Assembly (NCBI RefSeq): GCF_037975245.1
Contig: NC_092579.1
Location: 13,500,678-13,564,677 of the forward strand
Length of the DNA: 64,000 nucleotides
Source: Apostichopus japonicus
Taxonomy: Eukaryota > Echinodermata > Holothuroidea > Aspidochirotida > Stichopodidae
Reading direction: 5' to 3'
The position numbers were made by a program, and so were the translations under genes. Below, in pieces: positions 1 to 57,098 of this stretch (its first letter is position 1; the number at the start of each line of letters is the position of its first letter). Below the pieces are notes generated by a model. That model did no database searches and was not told the DNA's origin. It worked only from the letters and a program-made list of their open reading frames with translations.

Positions 1-3000
1 AAATACAAGAAACTCGTATGTAATTAGAAATGCAAATTTTGACTGTTACATTAACATAGCTTTTGTAGTAAATAGTCTATGTAGCCTTCAAGCAGATAGC
101 TATACTCAGTTGCTTACTTGCTCAACCAGTGTGAATTTAAGATTGTGAAATGAGGGCCAGTGGTACAAATGTATCGAGAAAAAAAGTTGACGGGGACTTT
201 AAAAGGCGGTCCCGGGGGCAGGAATGGGAGAGATTTCACACCCCTGCCTCTTTACCCTCTGAACAATTATTGAAAATAGAAGGCTTGAAGTAAGCCGGTG
301 TTCATCCATGGTTTAACACGGATAGGTTCTCAAATAAGCTACTGTAAAGCTTCTTGATCCTTGGGTAACTAAACTAAACTAATAATTAGCCAGAGTGAAT
401 ACTGTTATGCTCGAAAACTAATAGGGTATTAAAGTCGTCGCAACCCCCGCCCCTACCCACAACGCCCCTGGTAGCTTCCGTTTACCTAATTCCGTAAACG
501 AGACGCTTGGACGTTTCTGAACAGATGGTTGGGCTAGAGTTACCCACGAAAGAGGGAAAGGGGGAGGGAGGTGGGGTTAGTGCGACCGTGTGAGTAGTTC
601 GAAGTTTTTCAGCCCTTTCTTTGCGCTTTTATATGTGCCCCTCACAGTCTGATGATATAATAAATAATATTAAACTTATCATAGATTATATTATTGATTA
701 TTTTCATTTATCATCAAAGTTTATTACATATCATATGTTTTGTCCCCGGAGAAATTACCACTCAATCCTCCCCACCGTTACCATAATGCTGTACTACGAA
801 TACATGTTTGTATTTCTCCTTAAGGGAAAATTTGCTTATTTCAACGTTAAGGAGAAATACAAGAAACTCGTATCTAATTAGAAATACAAATTTTGACTGT
901 TACATTAACATATAGCTTTTGTAGTAAATAGTCTATGTAGCCTTCAAGCAGATAGCTATACTCAGTTGCTTACTTGCTCAACCAGTGTGAATTTAAGTTT
1001 GTGAAGTGAGGGCCAGTGGTACAAATGTATCGAAAAAAGTTGATGGGGACTTTAAAAGGCTGTCCCGGGAGCAGGAATGGGAGAGATTTCACACCCCTGC
1101 CTCTTTACCCCCTGAACAATTATTGAAAATAGAAGGCTTGAAGTATGCCGGTGTTCATCCATGATTTAACACGGATAGGTTCTCAAATAAGCTACTGTAA
1201 AGCTTCTTGATCCTTGGGTAACTAAACTAAACTAATAATTAGCCAGAGTGAATACTGTTATGCTCGAAAACTAATAGGGTATTAAAGTCGTCGCAACCCC
1301 CGCCCCTACCCACAACGCCCCTGGTAGCTTCCGTTTACCTATAATTCCGTAAACGAGACGCTTGGACGTTTCTGAACAGATGGTTAGGCTAGAGTTACCC
1401 ACGAAAGAGGGAAAGGGGGAGGGAGGTGGGGTTAGTGCGACCGTGTGAGTAGTTCGAAGTTTTTCAGCCCTTTCTTTGCGCTTTTATATGTGCCCCTCAC
1501 AGTCTGATGATATAATAAATAATATTAAACTTATCATAGATTATATTATTGATTATTTTCATTTATCATCAAAGTTTATTACATATCATATGTTTTGTCC
1601 CCGGAGAAATTACTCTACCACTCAATCCTCCCCACCGTACCCATAATGCTGTACTACGAATACATGTTTGTATTTCTCCATAAGGGAAAATTTGCTTATT
1701 TCGACGTTAAGGAGAAATACAAGAAACCTGTATCTAATTAGAAATGCAAATTCTGGCAGTTACATTAACATAGCTTTTGTAGTAAACAGTCTATGTAGCC
1801 TTCAAGCAGATAGCTATACTAAGTTGCTTACTTGCTCAACCAGTGTGATTAATAAGTTTGTGAAGTGATGGCCAGCGGTACAAATGTATCGAGAAAAAAA
1901 GTTGATGGGGACTTTAAAAGGCGGTCCCGGGAGCAGGAATGGGAGAGATTTCACACCCCTGCCTCTTTACCCTCTGAACAATTATCGAAAATAGAAGGCT
2001 TGAAGTAAGCCGGTGTTCATCCATGATCTAGCACGGATAGGTTCTCAAATAAGCTACTGTAAAGCTTCTTGATCCTTGGGTAACTAAACTAAACTAATAA
2101 TTAGCCAGAGTGAATACTGTTATGCTCGAAAACTAATAGGGTATTAAAGTCGTCGCAACCCCCGCCCCTACCCACAACGCCCCTGGTAGCTTCCGTTTAC
2201 CTAATTCCGTAAACGAGACGCTTGGACGTTTCTGAACAGATGGTTGGGCTAGAGTTACCCACGAAAGAGGGAAAGGGGGAGGGAGGTGAGGTTAGTGCGA
2301 CCGTGTGAGTAGTTCGAAGTTTTTCAGCCCTTTCTTTGCGCTTTTATATGTGCCCCTCACAGTCTGATGATATAATAAATAATATTAAACTTATCATAGA
2401 TTATATTATTGATTATTTTCATTTATCATCAAAGTTTATTACATATCATATGTTTTGTCCCCGGAGAAATTACTCTACCACTCAATCCTCCCCACCGTTA
2501 CCATAATGCTGTACTACGAATACATGTTTGTATTTCTCCTTAAGGGAAAATTTGCTTATTTCAACGTTAAGGAGAAATACAAGAAACTCGTATCTAATTA
2601 GAAATGCAAATTTTGACTGTTACATTAACATATAGCTTTTGTAGTAAACAGTCTATGTAGCCTTCAAGCAGATAGCTATACTCAGTTGCCTACTTGCTCA
2701 ACCAGTGTGAATTTAAGTTTGTGAAGTGAGGGCCAGTGGTACAAATGTATCGAAAAAAGTTGACGGGGACTTTAAAAGGCGGTCCCGGGGGCAGGAATGG
2801 GAGAGATTTCACACCCCTGCCTCTTTACCCTCTGAACAATTATCGAAAATAGAAGGCTTGAAGTAAGCCGGTGTTCATCCATGATCTAGCACGGATAGGT
2901 TCTCAAATAAGCTACTGTAAAGCTTCTTGATCCTTGGGTAACTAAACTAAACTAATAATTAGCCAGAGTGAATACTGTTATGCTCGAAAACTAATAGGGT

Positions 3001-6000
3001 ATTAAAGTCGTCGCAACCCCCGCCCCTACCCACAACGCCCCTGGTAGCTTCCGTTTACCTAATTCCGTAAACGAGACGCTTGGACGTTTCTGAACAGATG
3101 GTTGGGCTAGAGTTACCCACGAAAGAGGGAAAGGGGGAGGGAGGTGAGGTTAGTGCGACCGTGTGAGTAGTTCGAAGTTTTTCAGCCCTTTCTTTGCGCT
3201 TTTATATGTGCCCCTCACAGTCTGATGATATAATAAATAATATTAAACTTATCATAGATTATATTATTGATTATTTTCATTTATCATCAAAGTTTATTAC
3301 ATATCATATGTTTTGTCCCCGGAGAAATTACTCTACCACTCAATCCTCCCCACCGTTACCATAATGCTGTACTACGAATACATGTTTGTATTTCTCCTTA
3401 AGGGAAAATTTGCTTATTTCAACGTTAAGGAGAAATACAAGAAACTCGTATCTAATTAGAAATGCAAATTTTGACTGTTACATTAACATATAGCTTTTGT
3501 AGTAAACAGTCTATGTAGCCTTCAAGCAGATAGCTATACTCAGTTGCCTACTTGCTCAACCAGTGTGAATTTAAGTTTGTGAAGTGAGGGCCAGTGGTAC
3601 AAATGTATCGAAAAAAGTTGACGGGGACTTTAAAAGGCGGTCCCGGGGGCAGGAATGGGAGAGATTTCACACCCCTGCCTCTTTACCCTCTGAACAATTA
3701 TTGCAAATTGAAGGCTTGAAGTAAGCCGGTGTTCATCCATGATTTAACACGGATAGGTTCTCAAATAAGCTACTGTAAAGCTTCCTGATCCTTGGGTAAC
3801 TAAACTAAACTAATAATTAGCCAGAGTGAATACTGTTATGCTCGAAAACTAATAGGGTATTAAAGTCGTCGCAACCCCCGCCCCTACCCACAACGCCCCT
3901 GGTAGCTTCCGTTTACCTAATTCCGTAAACGAGACGCTTGGACGTTTCTGAACAGATGGTTGGGCTAGAGTTACCCACGAAAGAGGGAAAGGGGGAGTGA
4001 GGTGGGGTTAGTGCGACCGTGTGAGTAGTTCGAAGTTTTTCAACCCTTTCTTTGCGCTTTTATATGTGCCCCTCACAGTCTGATGATATAATAAATAATA
4101 TTAAACTTATCATAGATTATATTATTGATTATTTTCATTGATCATCAAAGTTTATTACATATCATATGTTTTGTCCCCGGAGAAATTACTCTACCACTCA
4201 ATCCTCCCCACCGTTACCATAATGTTGTACTACGAATACATGTTTGTATTTCTCCTTAAGGGAAAATTTGCTTATTTCAACGTTAAGGAGAAATACAAGA
4301 AACTCGTATCTAATTAGAAATGCAAATTCTGGCTGTTACATTAACATGGCTTTTGTAGTAAACAGTCTATGTAGCCTTCAAGCAGATGACTATACTCAGG
4401 TGCTTACTTGCTTAACCAGAGGGATTAATAAGTTTGTGAAGTGATGGCCAGCGGTACAAATGTAACGAGAAAAAAAGTTGATGGGGACTTTAAAAGGCGG
4501 TCCCGGGAGCAGGAATGGGAGAGAATTCACACCCCTGCCTCTTTACCCTCTGAACAATTATCGAAAATAGAAGGCTTGAAGTAAGCCGGTGTTCATCCAT
4601 GATTTAACACGGATAGGTTCTCAAATAAGCTACTGTAAAGCTTCTTGATCCTTGGGTAACTAAACTAAACTAATAATTAGCCAGAGTGAATACTGTTATG
4701 CTCGAAAACTAATAGGGTATTAAAGTCGTCGCAACCCCCGCCCCTACCCACAACGCCCCTGGTAGCTTCCGTTTACCTAATTCCGTAAACGAGACGCTTG
4801 GACGTTTCTGAACAGATGGTTGGGCTAGAGTTACCCACGAAAGAGGGAAAGGGGGAGGGAGGTGGGGTTAGTGCGACCGTGTGAGTAGTTCGAAGTTTTT
4901 CAGCCCTTTTTTGCGCTTTTATATGTGCCCCTCACAGTCTGATGATATAATAAATAATATTAAAATTATCATAGATTATATTATTGATTATTTTCATTGA
5001 TCATCAAAGTTTATTATATATCATATGTTTTGTCCCCGGAGAAATTACTCTACCACTCAATCCTCCCCACCGTTACCATAATGCTGTACTACGAATACAT
5101 GTTTGTATTTCTCCTTAAGGGAAAATTTGCTTATTTCAACGTTAAGGAGAAATACAAGAAACTTGTATCTAATTAGAAATGCAAATTTCGACTGTTACAT
5201 TAACATATAGCTTTTGTAGTAAATAGTCCATGTAGCCTTCAAGCAGATAGCTATACTCAGTTGCTTACTTGCTCAACCAGTGTGAATTTAAGATTGTGAA
5301 GTGAAGGCCAGTGGTACAAATGTATCGAAAAAAGTTGACGGGGACTTTAAAAGGCGGTCCCGGGAGCAGGAATGGGAGAGAATTCACACCCCTGCCTCTT
5401 TACCCTCTGAACATTTATCGAAAATAGAAGGCTTGAAGTAAGCCGGTGTTCATCCATGATCTAGCACGGATAGGTTCTCAAATAAGCTACTGTAAAGCTT
5501 CCTGATCCTTTGGTAACTAAACTAAACTAATAATTAGCCAGAGTGAATACTGTTATGCTCGAAAACTAATAGGGTATTAAAGTCGTCGCAACCCCCGCCC
5601 CTACCCACAACGCCCCTGGTAGCTTTCCTTCACCGATTTTCGTATACGAGATGCTTGAACGTTTCTGAACAGATGGTTGGGCTAGAGTTCCCCATGAAAG
5701 AGGGAAAGGGGGAGGGGTTTGGGGTAAGTGCGACCGTGTAGATAGTTCGAAGTTTTTCAGCCCTTTTATTGCGCTTTTATATGAACCCCTCACATTCCTG
5801 ATGTTATAGTAAATAATATTAAAATTATCATAGTTTATATTATTGATAATTTTCATTTTATCATCAAATTTTCTTACATATCATATGTTTTGTCCCCGGA
5901 GAAATTACTCTACCACTCAATCCTCCCACCGTACCCATAATTCTGTACTACGAATACATGTTTGTATTTCTCCTTAAAGGAAAATTTGCTTATTTCAACG

Positions 6001-6060
6001 TTAAGGAGAAATACAAGAAACTGTTAAGGAGAAATACAAAATACTGTTAAGGAGAAATAC
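1..6060. repeat. Seven-copy ~859-bp tandem satellite-like array
   Basis: The same unit repeats head to tail. Taking AAATACAAGAAAC as the phase marker, units begin at 1, 855, 1715, 2575, 3433, 4291 and 5150, and the next marker is at 6009, so the period is 854-860 bp. Units look well over 95% identical by eye, except the last, which diverges at about 5620-5960. The array then decays into three copies of a 17-bp end motif (GTTAAGGAGAAATACAA) at 6000-6062. Each unit carries an inverted repeat, TTGTATTTCTCCTTAA facing TTAAGGAGAAATACAA. No long reading frame is conserved across units and I recognise no rRNA, snRNA, tRNA or histone sequence. It lies upstream of the first visible SLC39A11 exon, so it is either intronic or 5' flanking to that gene. 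The left edge is cut by the window. Confidence 0.95.
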
Positions 6061-6313
6061 AAACTTTTCCCCCTAATCCTCATTAGTAGGAAAAATACGT
6101 TCGGGGGAAATTTTTAAAGGTCCAAAAAAGGTATATCCTAAGATCTTATTAATTTAATCTCAAAAGACATGTAGCACATTAGAGCACATCATGACAAGTA
6201 TTTCATGAAAATTTAGATATTAAAATATAATTTATTTCCATGTTATTCGTGTTTTCCCTCAATTTCCCCTTATGGTTCACTTTTTTCCATTTCCCCCTAT
6301 GGGTCAAACCAGT

Positions 6314-54896: not shown

Positions 54897-57098
54897 GAGG
54901 CATTGAACTTTGAAGACTCGCCCCGTGTTCGTACTTATGGCAAGCCGTTTTAACATTTACCTCTCTATTCTACTTAAGTAGAATTAATTCCACTTAAGTA
55001 GAATACAATTAAGCTTAAGTAAAATGAATTGCACTTAAGTAGAATTGCATTTTACTTAAGCTTAATTGTATTCCACTTAAGTGGAATTCATATTAGCTTA
55101 AGTTCAAACGGTTTTTGTCTACATCGTATTTTACTTAAGTAAAATACAATTCTACTTAAGTAAAATACAATTCTGCTTAAGTAAAATTCAATTCTACTTA
55201 AGTAAAATGCAATTCTGCTTAAGTAAAATTCAATTCTACTTAAGTAAAATGCTATTCTACTTAAGCAAAATGGCTTTTCAATTTCACTTAAGCTAAATTG
55301 CATTTTACTTAAGTGAAATAGAATTACGCTTAAGTGAAATGTGATTGGTCAATCTATTTCACTTAAGTAAAATGCAATTTAGCTTAAGTAAAATGTGATT
55401 GGTCAATCAGTATATGCTACTCATTGCGTCACTGTACTTGCCGCGAAGTCCGACTCTGTATACTATTTTAGGTACCTCACCACGTGTTCATCCGCTCAAT
55501 AGGTTTACCATTGTCAGAAAAGAGGTAAAAGTACCTAACGTAAAGCTTCCTAAAGCATGTTATCATTTACTGTCATCGTTTTTTCTGCCTTTATATGAAA
55601 GAGCATAATTTTAAGTACAGATGGTGTGAAAATAGGGAGGATCGAAGGTGATATAAACCATTTTAAAAATCTTTGGTTAAATGTTGATATTACTCCGAAC
55701 GAGCATATGGAAGGGTTCAGTGTGATAAACTTGCTCCTCTTCTAGCTCATAATCTAAACGGTCATGATATGGAAGTTTGCAAATGCCATGATAGGCCACT
55801 AGAACACAGCTATCATGTGGTGGGTAGGATATACCAGATGAAAACTTCTATCTATGCTTTGGCAGGTCTTGAAAGTGATGAGTTTAGTGAGTAAGTCAAT
55901 GGAACAATTAATTGTGATGCGAGACCTATAGAGTTACGTTCAAGACGTACTAGTTACGTAACCATTTGCGGCCATTCCCCCATTCTGCGATACTTATCCA
56001 GCTTTCGTTGTGTATATACGAACATAACACCATACTTAGCAAATGAAGCAAAGCTTTGTTTATCACTGAGTCTGAACGTTAGACATTTGGTAAATGCAGC
56101 CAGCCAAGGGAACGACTACAACACGACATACCACCAATCAGTGGTACTAGTAGTAGAAGTATCACAAGGCATGGTACCATGCATGTAAACATTGCCCCCA
56201 GACCAACCACACGAGGTAAATGATATAACGGCTTGCCATATCCTTCATTTCCACTTAAGCTAAATTGTATTTTACTTAAGTAGAATTGAATTTTACTTAA
56301 GTAAAATGCAATTGTATTCTACTTAAGTAAAATACAATTCTACTTAAGTAGAATACAATTTAGCTTAAGTTAAATTCAATTTCACTTAAGCTTAATTGTA
56401 TTCTACTTAAGTAAAATACAATTTTACTTAAGTAAAATGCATTTAGCTTAAGTGAAAAAGAATGACACTTTTACTTAAGCTAAATTAAATTTTACTTAAG
56501 TAGAATTGTATTTTACTTAAGTAGAATACAATTAAGCTTAAGTGAAATTGAATTTAACTTAAGCTTAAAAGAAAGTGGTAATTTTACTTAAGTGGAATAC
56601 AATTAAACTTAAGTAAAATGCAATTCTACTTAAGTGCAATTCATTTTACTTAAGCTTAATTGTATTCTACTTAAGTGCAATTCATTTCACTTAAGCTTAA
56701 TTGTATTCTACTTAAGTGGAATTAATTCTACTTAAGTAGAATAGAGAGGTAAATGTTAAAACGGCTTGCCATACGTACTCCTGAAAGAGTTAACTTTCTG
56801 TTGTTCGTAAGTGACGTTTTGTTCGTGTCGCTACAAAATGCAGACAGTATTGAAACGTGATACCTTAATTGTTATCTTAAGCTGGACCTGAGATGTCCAT
56901 CGCCGTATCGTTTGTATACTGTGTTGTGGGTATTGACCGTAGCTGTATGTACACTAGTGTCTAATTACCGACGATAGCAAGCTGTGTGTGTATTTTCTGG
57001 GATCGATGGTGGTGTTTAACACTTCTGTTACACCTCATTCGAAACTAGGTCAGATTACCGGCATTAGACGTTTCTTTTTGCGGCAGTCTTCACACCAT
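54897..57098 (+). mobile_element. TTAA-type MITE, copy 4, interrupted by the CTTAAG element
   Basis: The left part (54897-54935) carries AGGCATTGAA and GAAGACTCGCCCCGTGTTCG. The right part (56774-57098) carries GTTAACTTTCTGTTGTTCGT through CAGTCTTCACACCATTTAAA. Together these correspond to the ~360-bp MITE of copies 2 and 3, with 1,838 bp inserted. The left flank reads TTAG in place of TTAA. Confidence 0.85.
54936..56773. mobile_element. 1.84-kb palindrome-array element ('CTTAAG element')
   Basis: The termini TATGGCAAGCCG...CGGCTTGCCATA are inverted copies. Comparing by eye, the first 84 bp of the left end equal the reverse complement of the last 84 bp without mismatch, and similarity goes further in. 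Direct repeat CGTACT flanks it (54930-54935 and 56774-56779). Both arms (54968-55400 and 56249-56750) consist of ATTCTACTTAAGTAGAAT-like palindromes, 19 CTTAAG in the first and 23 in the second, mostly 20-21 bp apart. The middle (55420-56210) is ordinary-looking DNA with only short frames, so I see no transposase. A 28-bp second copy of the right terminus lies at 56213-56240, at the inner edge of the right arm. The superfamily is unknown; a 6-bp duplication fits few groups (for example IS3EU or Dada-like). Confidence 0.9.

What the first reader, a model, noticed from the sequence alone, without database searches (positions are those of the whole stretch)
54936..56773. Transposon-like element whose arms are phased arrays of CTTAAG palindromes
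Seen directly: 42 CTTAAG hexamers in about 1 kb, each the centre of an ~18-bp near-palindrome (ATTCTACTTAAGTAGAAT type), usually repeating every 20-21 bp. That is two helical turns, so all centres would face the same side of DNA. The outermost 84 bp of the two ends are identical in inverse, and CGTACT flanks both sides, so it behaves like a mobile unit. Inference: the palindromes could be arrayed sites for a dimeric DNA-binding protein (a transposase or host factor), or a scaffold for cruciforms. I know no named family with this design, and no transposase is visible inside.
Basis: partly seen in the sequence, partly recalled or inferred. Interest (0 to 1): 0.9.

Follow-up and report, generated by a model that had tools for sequence, protein, structure and literature searches.

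The report
Jumping gene with phased protein-docking arrays
This stretch is a gene-less copy of a large jumping-gene family whose ends carry dozens of evenly spaced symmetric sites that look like docking sites for paired proteins, and a sister lineage with the same tips uses a different motif in their place.

Summary
54936-56773 is a 1,838-bp non-autonomous DNA transposon with TATGG..CCATA ends, a 6-bp target duplication (CGTACT) and 42 CTTAAG-centred units; 34 of 40 within-arm spacings are 20-21 bp. At least 40 places in the same 671-Mb genome, window included, carry its left arm at 97-100% identity. Two ~21-23-kb relatives have the same arms and encode an integrase-type DDE transposase (PF24764). 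A sister lineage shares the outer 17 bp but repeats GATATC-centred units every 20-21 bp. Its four 20-26-kb copies also encode the transposase, 51% identical in the core in the copy compared. Ends and duplication length fit IS3EU/GingerRoot.

The units do not behave as base-paired palindromes: variable symmetric positions do not covary. They behave as symmetric protein footprints: fixed positions vary far less among copies than free positions, in both lineages. Most likely the arrays bind a dimeric element-encoded protein that recognises or synapses the ends, as TNPA does on CACTA subterminal repeats. The protein is not identified. New variant of a known kind.

The parts
54930..54935 (.). left target-site duplication CGTACT
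   Evidence: identical to 56774-56779
54936..56773 (+). whole non-autonomous element (composite type, 1,838 bp)
   Evidence: inverted ends, 6-bp TSD, many copies
54936..54963 (+). left 28-bp terminal segment TATGGCAAGCCGTTTTAACATTTACCTC; its first 17 bp are shared with the GATATC lineage
   Evidence: pi .0063 for the two 28-bp segments together
54967..55394 (.). left array, 19 CTTAAG-centred units
   Evidence: the outer 281 bp of the arm is 96.8% identical to a 22.7-kb transposase-bearing copy
55395..56228 (.). interior; no ATG/GTG/TTG-started ORF of 120 aa or more listed
   Evidence: 88-94% identical in the other copies that match the whole query
56229..56240 (-). internal copy of the terminal sequence (CGGCTTGCCATA), marking the composite structure
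56248..56742 (.). right array, 23 CTTAAG-centred units
   Evidence: the outer 285 bp of the right end is 99% identical to the 22.7-kb transposase-bearing copy
56746..56773 (-). right 28-bp terminal segment
56774..56779 (.). right target-site duplication CGTACT

Best explanation
The element is a non-autonomous member of an IS3EU/GingerRoot-type DNA transposon family, mobilised in trans by an integrase-like DDE transposase carried by ~21-23-kb relatives in the same genome. SHOWN: family, ends, TSDs, transposase-bearing relatives with near-identical arms, and position-specific constraint on the array. INFERRED: mobilisation in trans; that each CTTAAG unit is a two-fold symmetric site for a protein dimer, contacting CTTAAG and the outer ATT/AAT and largely ignoring +-5 and +-6; that sites spaced about two helical turns apart let many dimers load mainly on one DNA face, marking and synapsing the two ends for cleavage at the conserved TATGGCAAGCCG tips. 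The protein is more likely element-encoded (transposase N-terminal region or a second gene) than a host factor, because the sister lineage keeps the tips but has both a diverged transposase and wholly different symmetric sites (TTGnTGATATCAnCAA).
For: Tips: 361+/396- exact TATGGCAAGCCG genome-wide versus 8/4 for the reversed control. TSD: perfect 6 bp in 27 of 32 copies, chance 0.001; consensus NG..CN. Transposase: of 35 pairs of exact GATATC-type ends, the 4 longest (20-26 kb) and no shorter one hold one of the 19 strongest rva_4 matches, always 4,592-4,614 bp from one end (expected by chance 0.0025). Two CTTAAG-type copies, C1:12260970-12283636 and C16:5792413-5813831, also hold it. Array function: all 37 ATT-N12-AAT slots in the window arms have CTTAAG centres; over 22 aligned copies pi is .0066 (core) and .0077 (+-7 to 9) versus .0240 (+-5 to 6).0321 (spacer base) and .0222 (interior). 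This holds after matching for base: A/T core 11 of 152 sites variable versus interior 79 of 487, p=.005; A/T outer triplets 15 of 254, p=4e-5. Variants shared by two or more copies: core 0 at 228 sites, interior 33 at 812, p=4e-4. Replicated in three GATATC copies: constrained positions 7 of 716 variable versus free positions 23 of 178, p=1e-11. No covariation at free positions. Unique small indels: 9 in 1,006 bp of arms versus 35 in 893 bp of interior, p=1e-5; clustered 8 versus 20, p=.013.
Against: No binding protein is identified. Six of 40 spacings break phase. Some elements with few units still look mobile: a 3-unit element (L010, perfect TSD), one with an array at one end only (L017, TSD 5 of 6) and a short GATATC type (L022, TSD 4 of 6), so long arrays are not strictly required. 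The 16.2-kb GATATC-type pair holds none of the 19 strong transposase matches. Copies are related, so the site tests overstate independence. Cores also have fewer single-copy variants (17 at 228 sites versus 117 at 812), which could partly reflect local mutation rate or events before the last jump. The window's own perfect cores were used to place units (removed); units were placed where the majority of three copies reads GATATC, which favours the core but not +-6 to 8 or +-10.
Confidence: 0.65

Rival explanations
1. The arrays bind a host DNA-binding protein (for example a homeodomain-type factor) for expression, targeting or silencing, not for end synapsis.
For: The constraint pattern shows protein-like recognition but not whose protein. 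CACTTAAGTG resembles back-to-back NK2-type half-sites (recalled, not tested).
Against: The sister lineage in the same genome uses an unrelated core with the same period, and each lineage has its own transposase. Two host proteins would have to have been recruited independently.
Confidence: 0.2
2. The palindromes work as DNA structures (cruciforms, hairpins or intrinsic curvature from phased A/T runs).
For: Dyad symmetry, AT-richness, ~21-bp phasing, small-indel depletion in arms.
Against: Symmetric variable positions do not covary: CTTAAG-type +-4 p=1.0, +-5 p=.08, +-6 p=.55; GATATC-type +-5 p=.81 and .89, +-9 p=.83 and .72. Constraint is on particular letters, not on pairing. Curvature does not require CTTAAG or GATATC.
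Confidence: 0.08
3. The arrays are neutral satellite-like repeats that expand by slippage and hitch-hike.
For: 8 of 10 arm indel events over 10 bp are 20, 21 or 41 bp, i.e. whole units. Unit number varies from 3 to over 20.
Against: Neutral drift does not spare the same symmetric positions in two unrelated unit types.
Confidence: 0.07

Closest known systems
IS3EU/GingerRoot superfamily (PMC10045372, section 3.3 and passages read; PMC12730594, section 3.1.3 and passages read)
   Same: TA..TA termini; fungal members end TAYGG..CCRTA; 6-bp TSD; DDE transposase related to IS481/IS3.
   Different: The passages read mention no phased symmetric-site arrays; a search inside PMC12730594 for 'subterminal' found none and the one 'palindrom' passage is about TET/JBP gene boundaries. 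Alpha-kinase and TET/JBP genes of some fungal members: the few genome-wide matches here lie elsewhere. Two oyster satellites (129 and 690 bp units) are annotated as IS3EU in PMC8268682 (passages), so longer tandem repeats in IS3EU are on record.
CACTA (En/Spm, soybean Tgmt*, 20.5 kb; PMC2613891, passages read)
   Same: Conserved tips plus diverged, repeated subterminal motifs recognised by a DNA-binding protein that the element encodes; similar size; subterminal motif types differ within one species.
   Different: CACTA termini and a 3-bp TSD; a different transposase family.
Foldback elements Galileo and Tetris (PMC4079207, passages read)
   Same: Long terminal inverted repeats holding tandem repeats; in Galileo these are reported to add transposase binding sites.
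   Different: Different superfamilies (Galileo in the P superfamily per the PMC4168063 abstract start; Tetris assigned to Mutator, 8-10-bp TSDs); Tetris units are ~220 bp, not 21-bp dyads.
Hermes (hAT) subterminal repeats (PMC10368747, passages read)
   Same: A quasi-palindromic subterminal pair bound cooperatively, with phasing important.
   Different: A few sites, BED domains, hAT transposase; not dozens of phased sites.

Membership tests
IS3EU/GingerRoot | TA..TA termini (TAYGG..CCRTA in fungal members) | tested here: met
   TATGG..CCATA in the 32 copies (they were found by these ends, so this is not independent; the TSD beside the ends is)
IS3EU/GingerRoot | 6-bp target-site duplication | tested here: met
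   27 of 32 perfect 6-bp
IS3EU/GingerRoot | integrase-core DDE transposase related to IS481/IS3 in the autonomous copies | tested here: met
   PF24764 E 3e-74 to 3e-76; weak NCBIfam matches, IS481 6e-4 and .009, IS3 .0016, all under the curated cut-offs; D-34-E spacing
IS3EU/GingerRoot | transposase clusters with IS3EU/GingerRoot references in a tree | not testable with these tools
   no Repbase reference sequences on hand
IS3EU/GingerRoot | no HHCC zinc motif upstream of the core | not tested
CACTA (EnSpm) | CACTA termini, short TSD (3 bp in PMC2613891) | tested here: not met
   TATGG termini, 6-bp TSD
Foldback/Mutator (Tetris type) | 8-10-bp TSD (PMC4079207) | tested here: not met
   6 bp
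Polinton/Maverick | 6-bp TSD (PMC10045372) with AG..CT termini (termini recalled) | tested here: not met
   TSD length agrees, termini do not

The most novel reading that the evidence does not exclude
A transposon lineage whose ends are long, helically phased dyad arrays that nucleate a one-faced nucleoprotein filament for end pairing, with a swappable specificity code: sister families keep the same cleavage tips but replace every array site and the cognate binder, making two end-recognition systems orthogonal inside one genome.
Probability: 0.3. Interest if true: 0.78.

Novelty: new variant of a known kind. Interest (0 to 1): 0.62.

Why it matters
It separates two layers of transposon-end recognition. 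The cleavage tips are shared between lineages, while dense phased arrays differ completely and are conserved letter by letter at symmetric contact positions. Two transposase lineages in one genome with matching array types give a natural test of how end-recognition codes diverge, and a source of dense operator-like arrays for synthetic use.

Tried and rejected
PF13683 (rve_3) as transposase probe: 88 matches; I looked at the 4 fetched loci of the best ones (L060-L063), which look like Gypsy-type integrase by my own reading and showed no TATGGCAAGCC tip. A third terminus without an array (L026:1001): near-full matches only at C3:7.72-7.81 Mb and a partial one at C3:7.86 Mb; the remaining listed matches cover only the query's last ~90 bases. 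Alpha-kinase and TET/JBP, known in fungal IS3EU: 3 and 2 genome-wide matches, none in the large copies. Cruciform reading rejected by lack of covariation. One search set the left-arm boundary wrongly (an extra CTTAAG in the interior), so its arm/interior split and its p of .052 are discarded; and the recount stand. PDB search with the GATATC-type transposase core: one chance-level match, E .85. Papers: the ten searches listed no paper that, from title, abstract start and the passages I read, describes phased palindrome arrays in IS3EU; most listed papers were not opened, and the GingerRoot source paper and Repbase were not available to me.

Full report
WHAT IS THERE. 54936-56773 reads TATGGCAAGCCGTTTTAACATTTACCTC, then 19 CTTAAG units, ~0.83 kb of interior, an internal CGGCTTGCCATA, 23 CTTAAG units, and the inverted terminal segment, flanked by CGTACT on both sides. 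The count of 42 is far above chance (Markov shuffles: mean 1.07, maximum 5 in 500).

IT IS A FAMILY. TATGGCAAGCCG occurs 361+/396- times against 8/4 for the reversed control. With the interior as query the tool scored 40 candidates, the window included; the other matches that span the whole query are 88-94% identical. The first 193 bp of the left arm is 97-100% identical in the 40 best places, the window included. Both are lower bounds, because only the best candidates are scored. Among 32 fetched copies with both ends intact, repeats of one place dropped, 27 have a perfect 6-bp TSD; the five misses are L014 (5 bp), L017 and L044 (5 of 6), L022 (4 of 6) and L037 (2 of 6). G is at position 2 in 24 of 27 and C at position 5 in 22 of 27. 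These independent insertions make an assembly artefact very unlikely. The window's type is composite: an inner terminus lies 533 bp inside the right end, and 17 of the 20 loci show both an inner and an outer exact terminus about 0.5 kb apart.

A SECOND LINEAGE WITH DIFFERENT SITES. L009, L013, L059 and the 204-bp L022 begin TATGGCAAGCCGTTTTA too, but their arms repeat ATTTGnTGATATCAnCAAAT-like units: 49, 50, 51 and 6 GATATC in these elements, mostly 20-21 bp apart. A 35-bp GATATC-type end with up to 3 mismatches occurs 91+/88- times, control 0/0. Pairing the 42 forward and 45 reverse exact ends gives 35 elements: 2 of ~0.45 kb, 21 of 2.8-3.3 kb, 7 of 5.4-9.5 kb, one of 16.2 kb and 4 of 20.4-26.0 kb. 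L010, with the CTTAAG core, is by my reading a minimal element (terminus, three CTTAAG units, terminus, TSD GTTCTG) into which a TTAA-flanked insertion has landed.

THE TRANSPOSASE. PF24764 (rva_4, integrase core) gave 143 matches, 19 of them with E below 1e-64. Four of the 19 lie in the four longest GATATC-type pairs, 4,592-4,614 bp from one end in every case, and none in the 31 shorter pairs (chance expectation .0025); by eye, none of the other 124 lies in a shorter pair either. Two of the 19 lie in CTTAAG-type elements: C1:12260970-12283636 (22.67 kb, TSD CGGCCG on both sides, ends read in L070/L071), whose left arm is 96.8% identical to the window's over 281 bp, and C16:5792413-5813831 (21.4 kb), placed by arm matches of 98% and 100% with its transposase inside; the TSD of the latter was not read. 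The other 13 strong matches were not tested for CTTAAG-type ends. The two CTTAAG-type proteins are 98% identical to each other and that of C1 is 51% identical over 183 aa to the GATATC-type of C17; an upstream exon is 58% identical over 64 aa. Both have D-34-E spacing. NCBIfam gives only weak IS481 and IS3 matches under the cut-offs.

WHAT THE UNITS ARE. If the units were selected to base-pair, symmetric variable positions should covary. They do not: CTTAAG-type (42 units) +-4 p=1.0, +-5 p=.079, +-6 p=.55; GATATC-type +-5 p=.81 and .89, +-9 p=.83 and .72 in L059 (46 of 51 units; five not counted, as my filter drops weakly symmetric ones) and L013 (50 units). The exceptions are L013 +-4 (p=.019, one unit) and +-12 (p=.015 in L013.056 in L059), the latter in the spacer between units. 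What is kept is a set of fixed letters on both sides of each dyad, as expected for a dimer footprint.

SELECTION. Twenty-two composite copies were aligned: 17 of the 20 loci (L035 and L045 left out for missing or rearranged ends; L029 is the window itself), four loci, and the window. Diversity is .0066 in CTTAAG and .0077 in the outer triplets, like the 28-bp termini (.0063), but .0197 at +-4.0240 at +-5 to 6.0321 in the spacer base next to each unit and .0222 in the interior. With units placed from the majority sequence rather than the window, and split by base, the contrast stays: A/T core 11 of 152 variable versus 79 of 487 interior (p=.005); C/G core 6 of 76 versus 64 of 325 (p=.018); A/T outer triplets 15 of 254 (p=4e-5). 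The four C/G outer-triplet sites show no difference (1 of 4 variable, p=.59). Variants shared by copies: core 0 at 228 sites, interior 33 at 812 (p=4e-4). Three GATATC copies repeat the pattern: +-1 to 4, 3 of 360 variable; +-6 to 8, 4 of 267; +-10, 0 of 89; versus +-5, 18 of 89, +-9, 5 of 89, and 12 of 256 in the rest of the arms (constrained versus free p=1e-11). Unique indels of 10 bp or less are rarer in arms (9 in 1,006 bp) than in the interior (35 in 893 bp); collapsing neighbours within 15 bp leaves 8 versus 20, p=.013. Copies share ancestry, so these p values are optimistic.

HOW IT MOST LIKELY WORKS. Shown: a mobile family with transposase-bearing relatives and constrained dyad arrays in two lineages. 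Inferred: a dimer binds each unit, neighbouring dimers sit mostly on one DNA face, and the loaded arms mark and pair the ends so that the integrase-like transposase cuts at the shared tips. The nearest documented logic is CACTA: conserved tips with a conserved transposase, plus variable subterminal motifs bound by a diverged element-encoded protein (PMC2613891, passages). Foldback Galileo repeats also add transposase sites (as told in PMC4079207, passages), and Hermes uses a phased quasi-palindromic subterminal pair (PMC10368747, passages). Which protein binds here is unknown; N-terminal transposase exons and most of the large copies were not read.

MEMBERSHIP AND NOVELTY. Complete IS3EU families are said always to have TA..TA termini and usually 6-bp TSDs, and GingerRoot forms one lineage with IS3EU (PMC10045372 section 3.3); a set of fungal IS3EU end TAYGG..CCRTA (PMC12730594 section 3.1.3). 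The features tested are met; tree placement could not be tested and absence of HHCC was not. Of these texts I read only the named sections and passages, and they mention no such arrays; oyster satellites of 129 and 690 bp annotated as IS3EU are on record (PMC8268682, passages). I therefore call it a new variant of a known kind.

Noticed in passing
window 1-6062: Satellite-like tandem array of at least 7 copies of an ~858-bp unit; segments 63-100% identical to their reference copy, 97-100% in the best-kept segment.
   Followed up: no
L010:2107-2905; L045 near 3620: A TTAA-flanked element with AGCAGCATTTTGCG..CGCAAAATGCTGCT ends sits in the terminus of L010; the same end sequence begins inside a CTTAAG unit of L045, so CTTAAG arrays may be landing sites for TTAA-specific transposons.
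   Followed up: partly
L059:1407-6949: A 9.45-kb GATATC-type element (TSD CGTCCC) carries a LINE-like endonuclease/RT frame of 961 aa, a CCHC gag-like frame and a frame that looks like GIY-YIG (all by eye, not searched); four other pairs are 8.9-9.1 kb and may be the same class.
   Followed up: partly
window 56229-56240: Composite architecture: an internal terminus 533 bp inside the right end; the mobile unit uses the outer terminus, as the shared TSD shows. 17 of 20 loci have the same layout.
   Followed up: partly
G000 C3:7716687-7860164: A terminus with the same tips but no array (TATGGCAAGCCGTTTTATAACTCATATAG) found only in a cluster on C3 that looks like local duplications.
   Followed up: partly
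G000 C1:11141082-11147575 (L011): A 6.5-kb cluster of nested or tandem CTTAAG-array elements with 10 exact termini.
   Followed up: no
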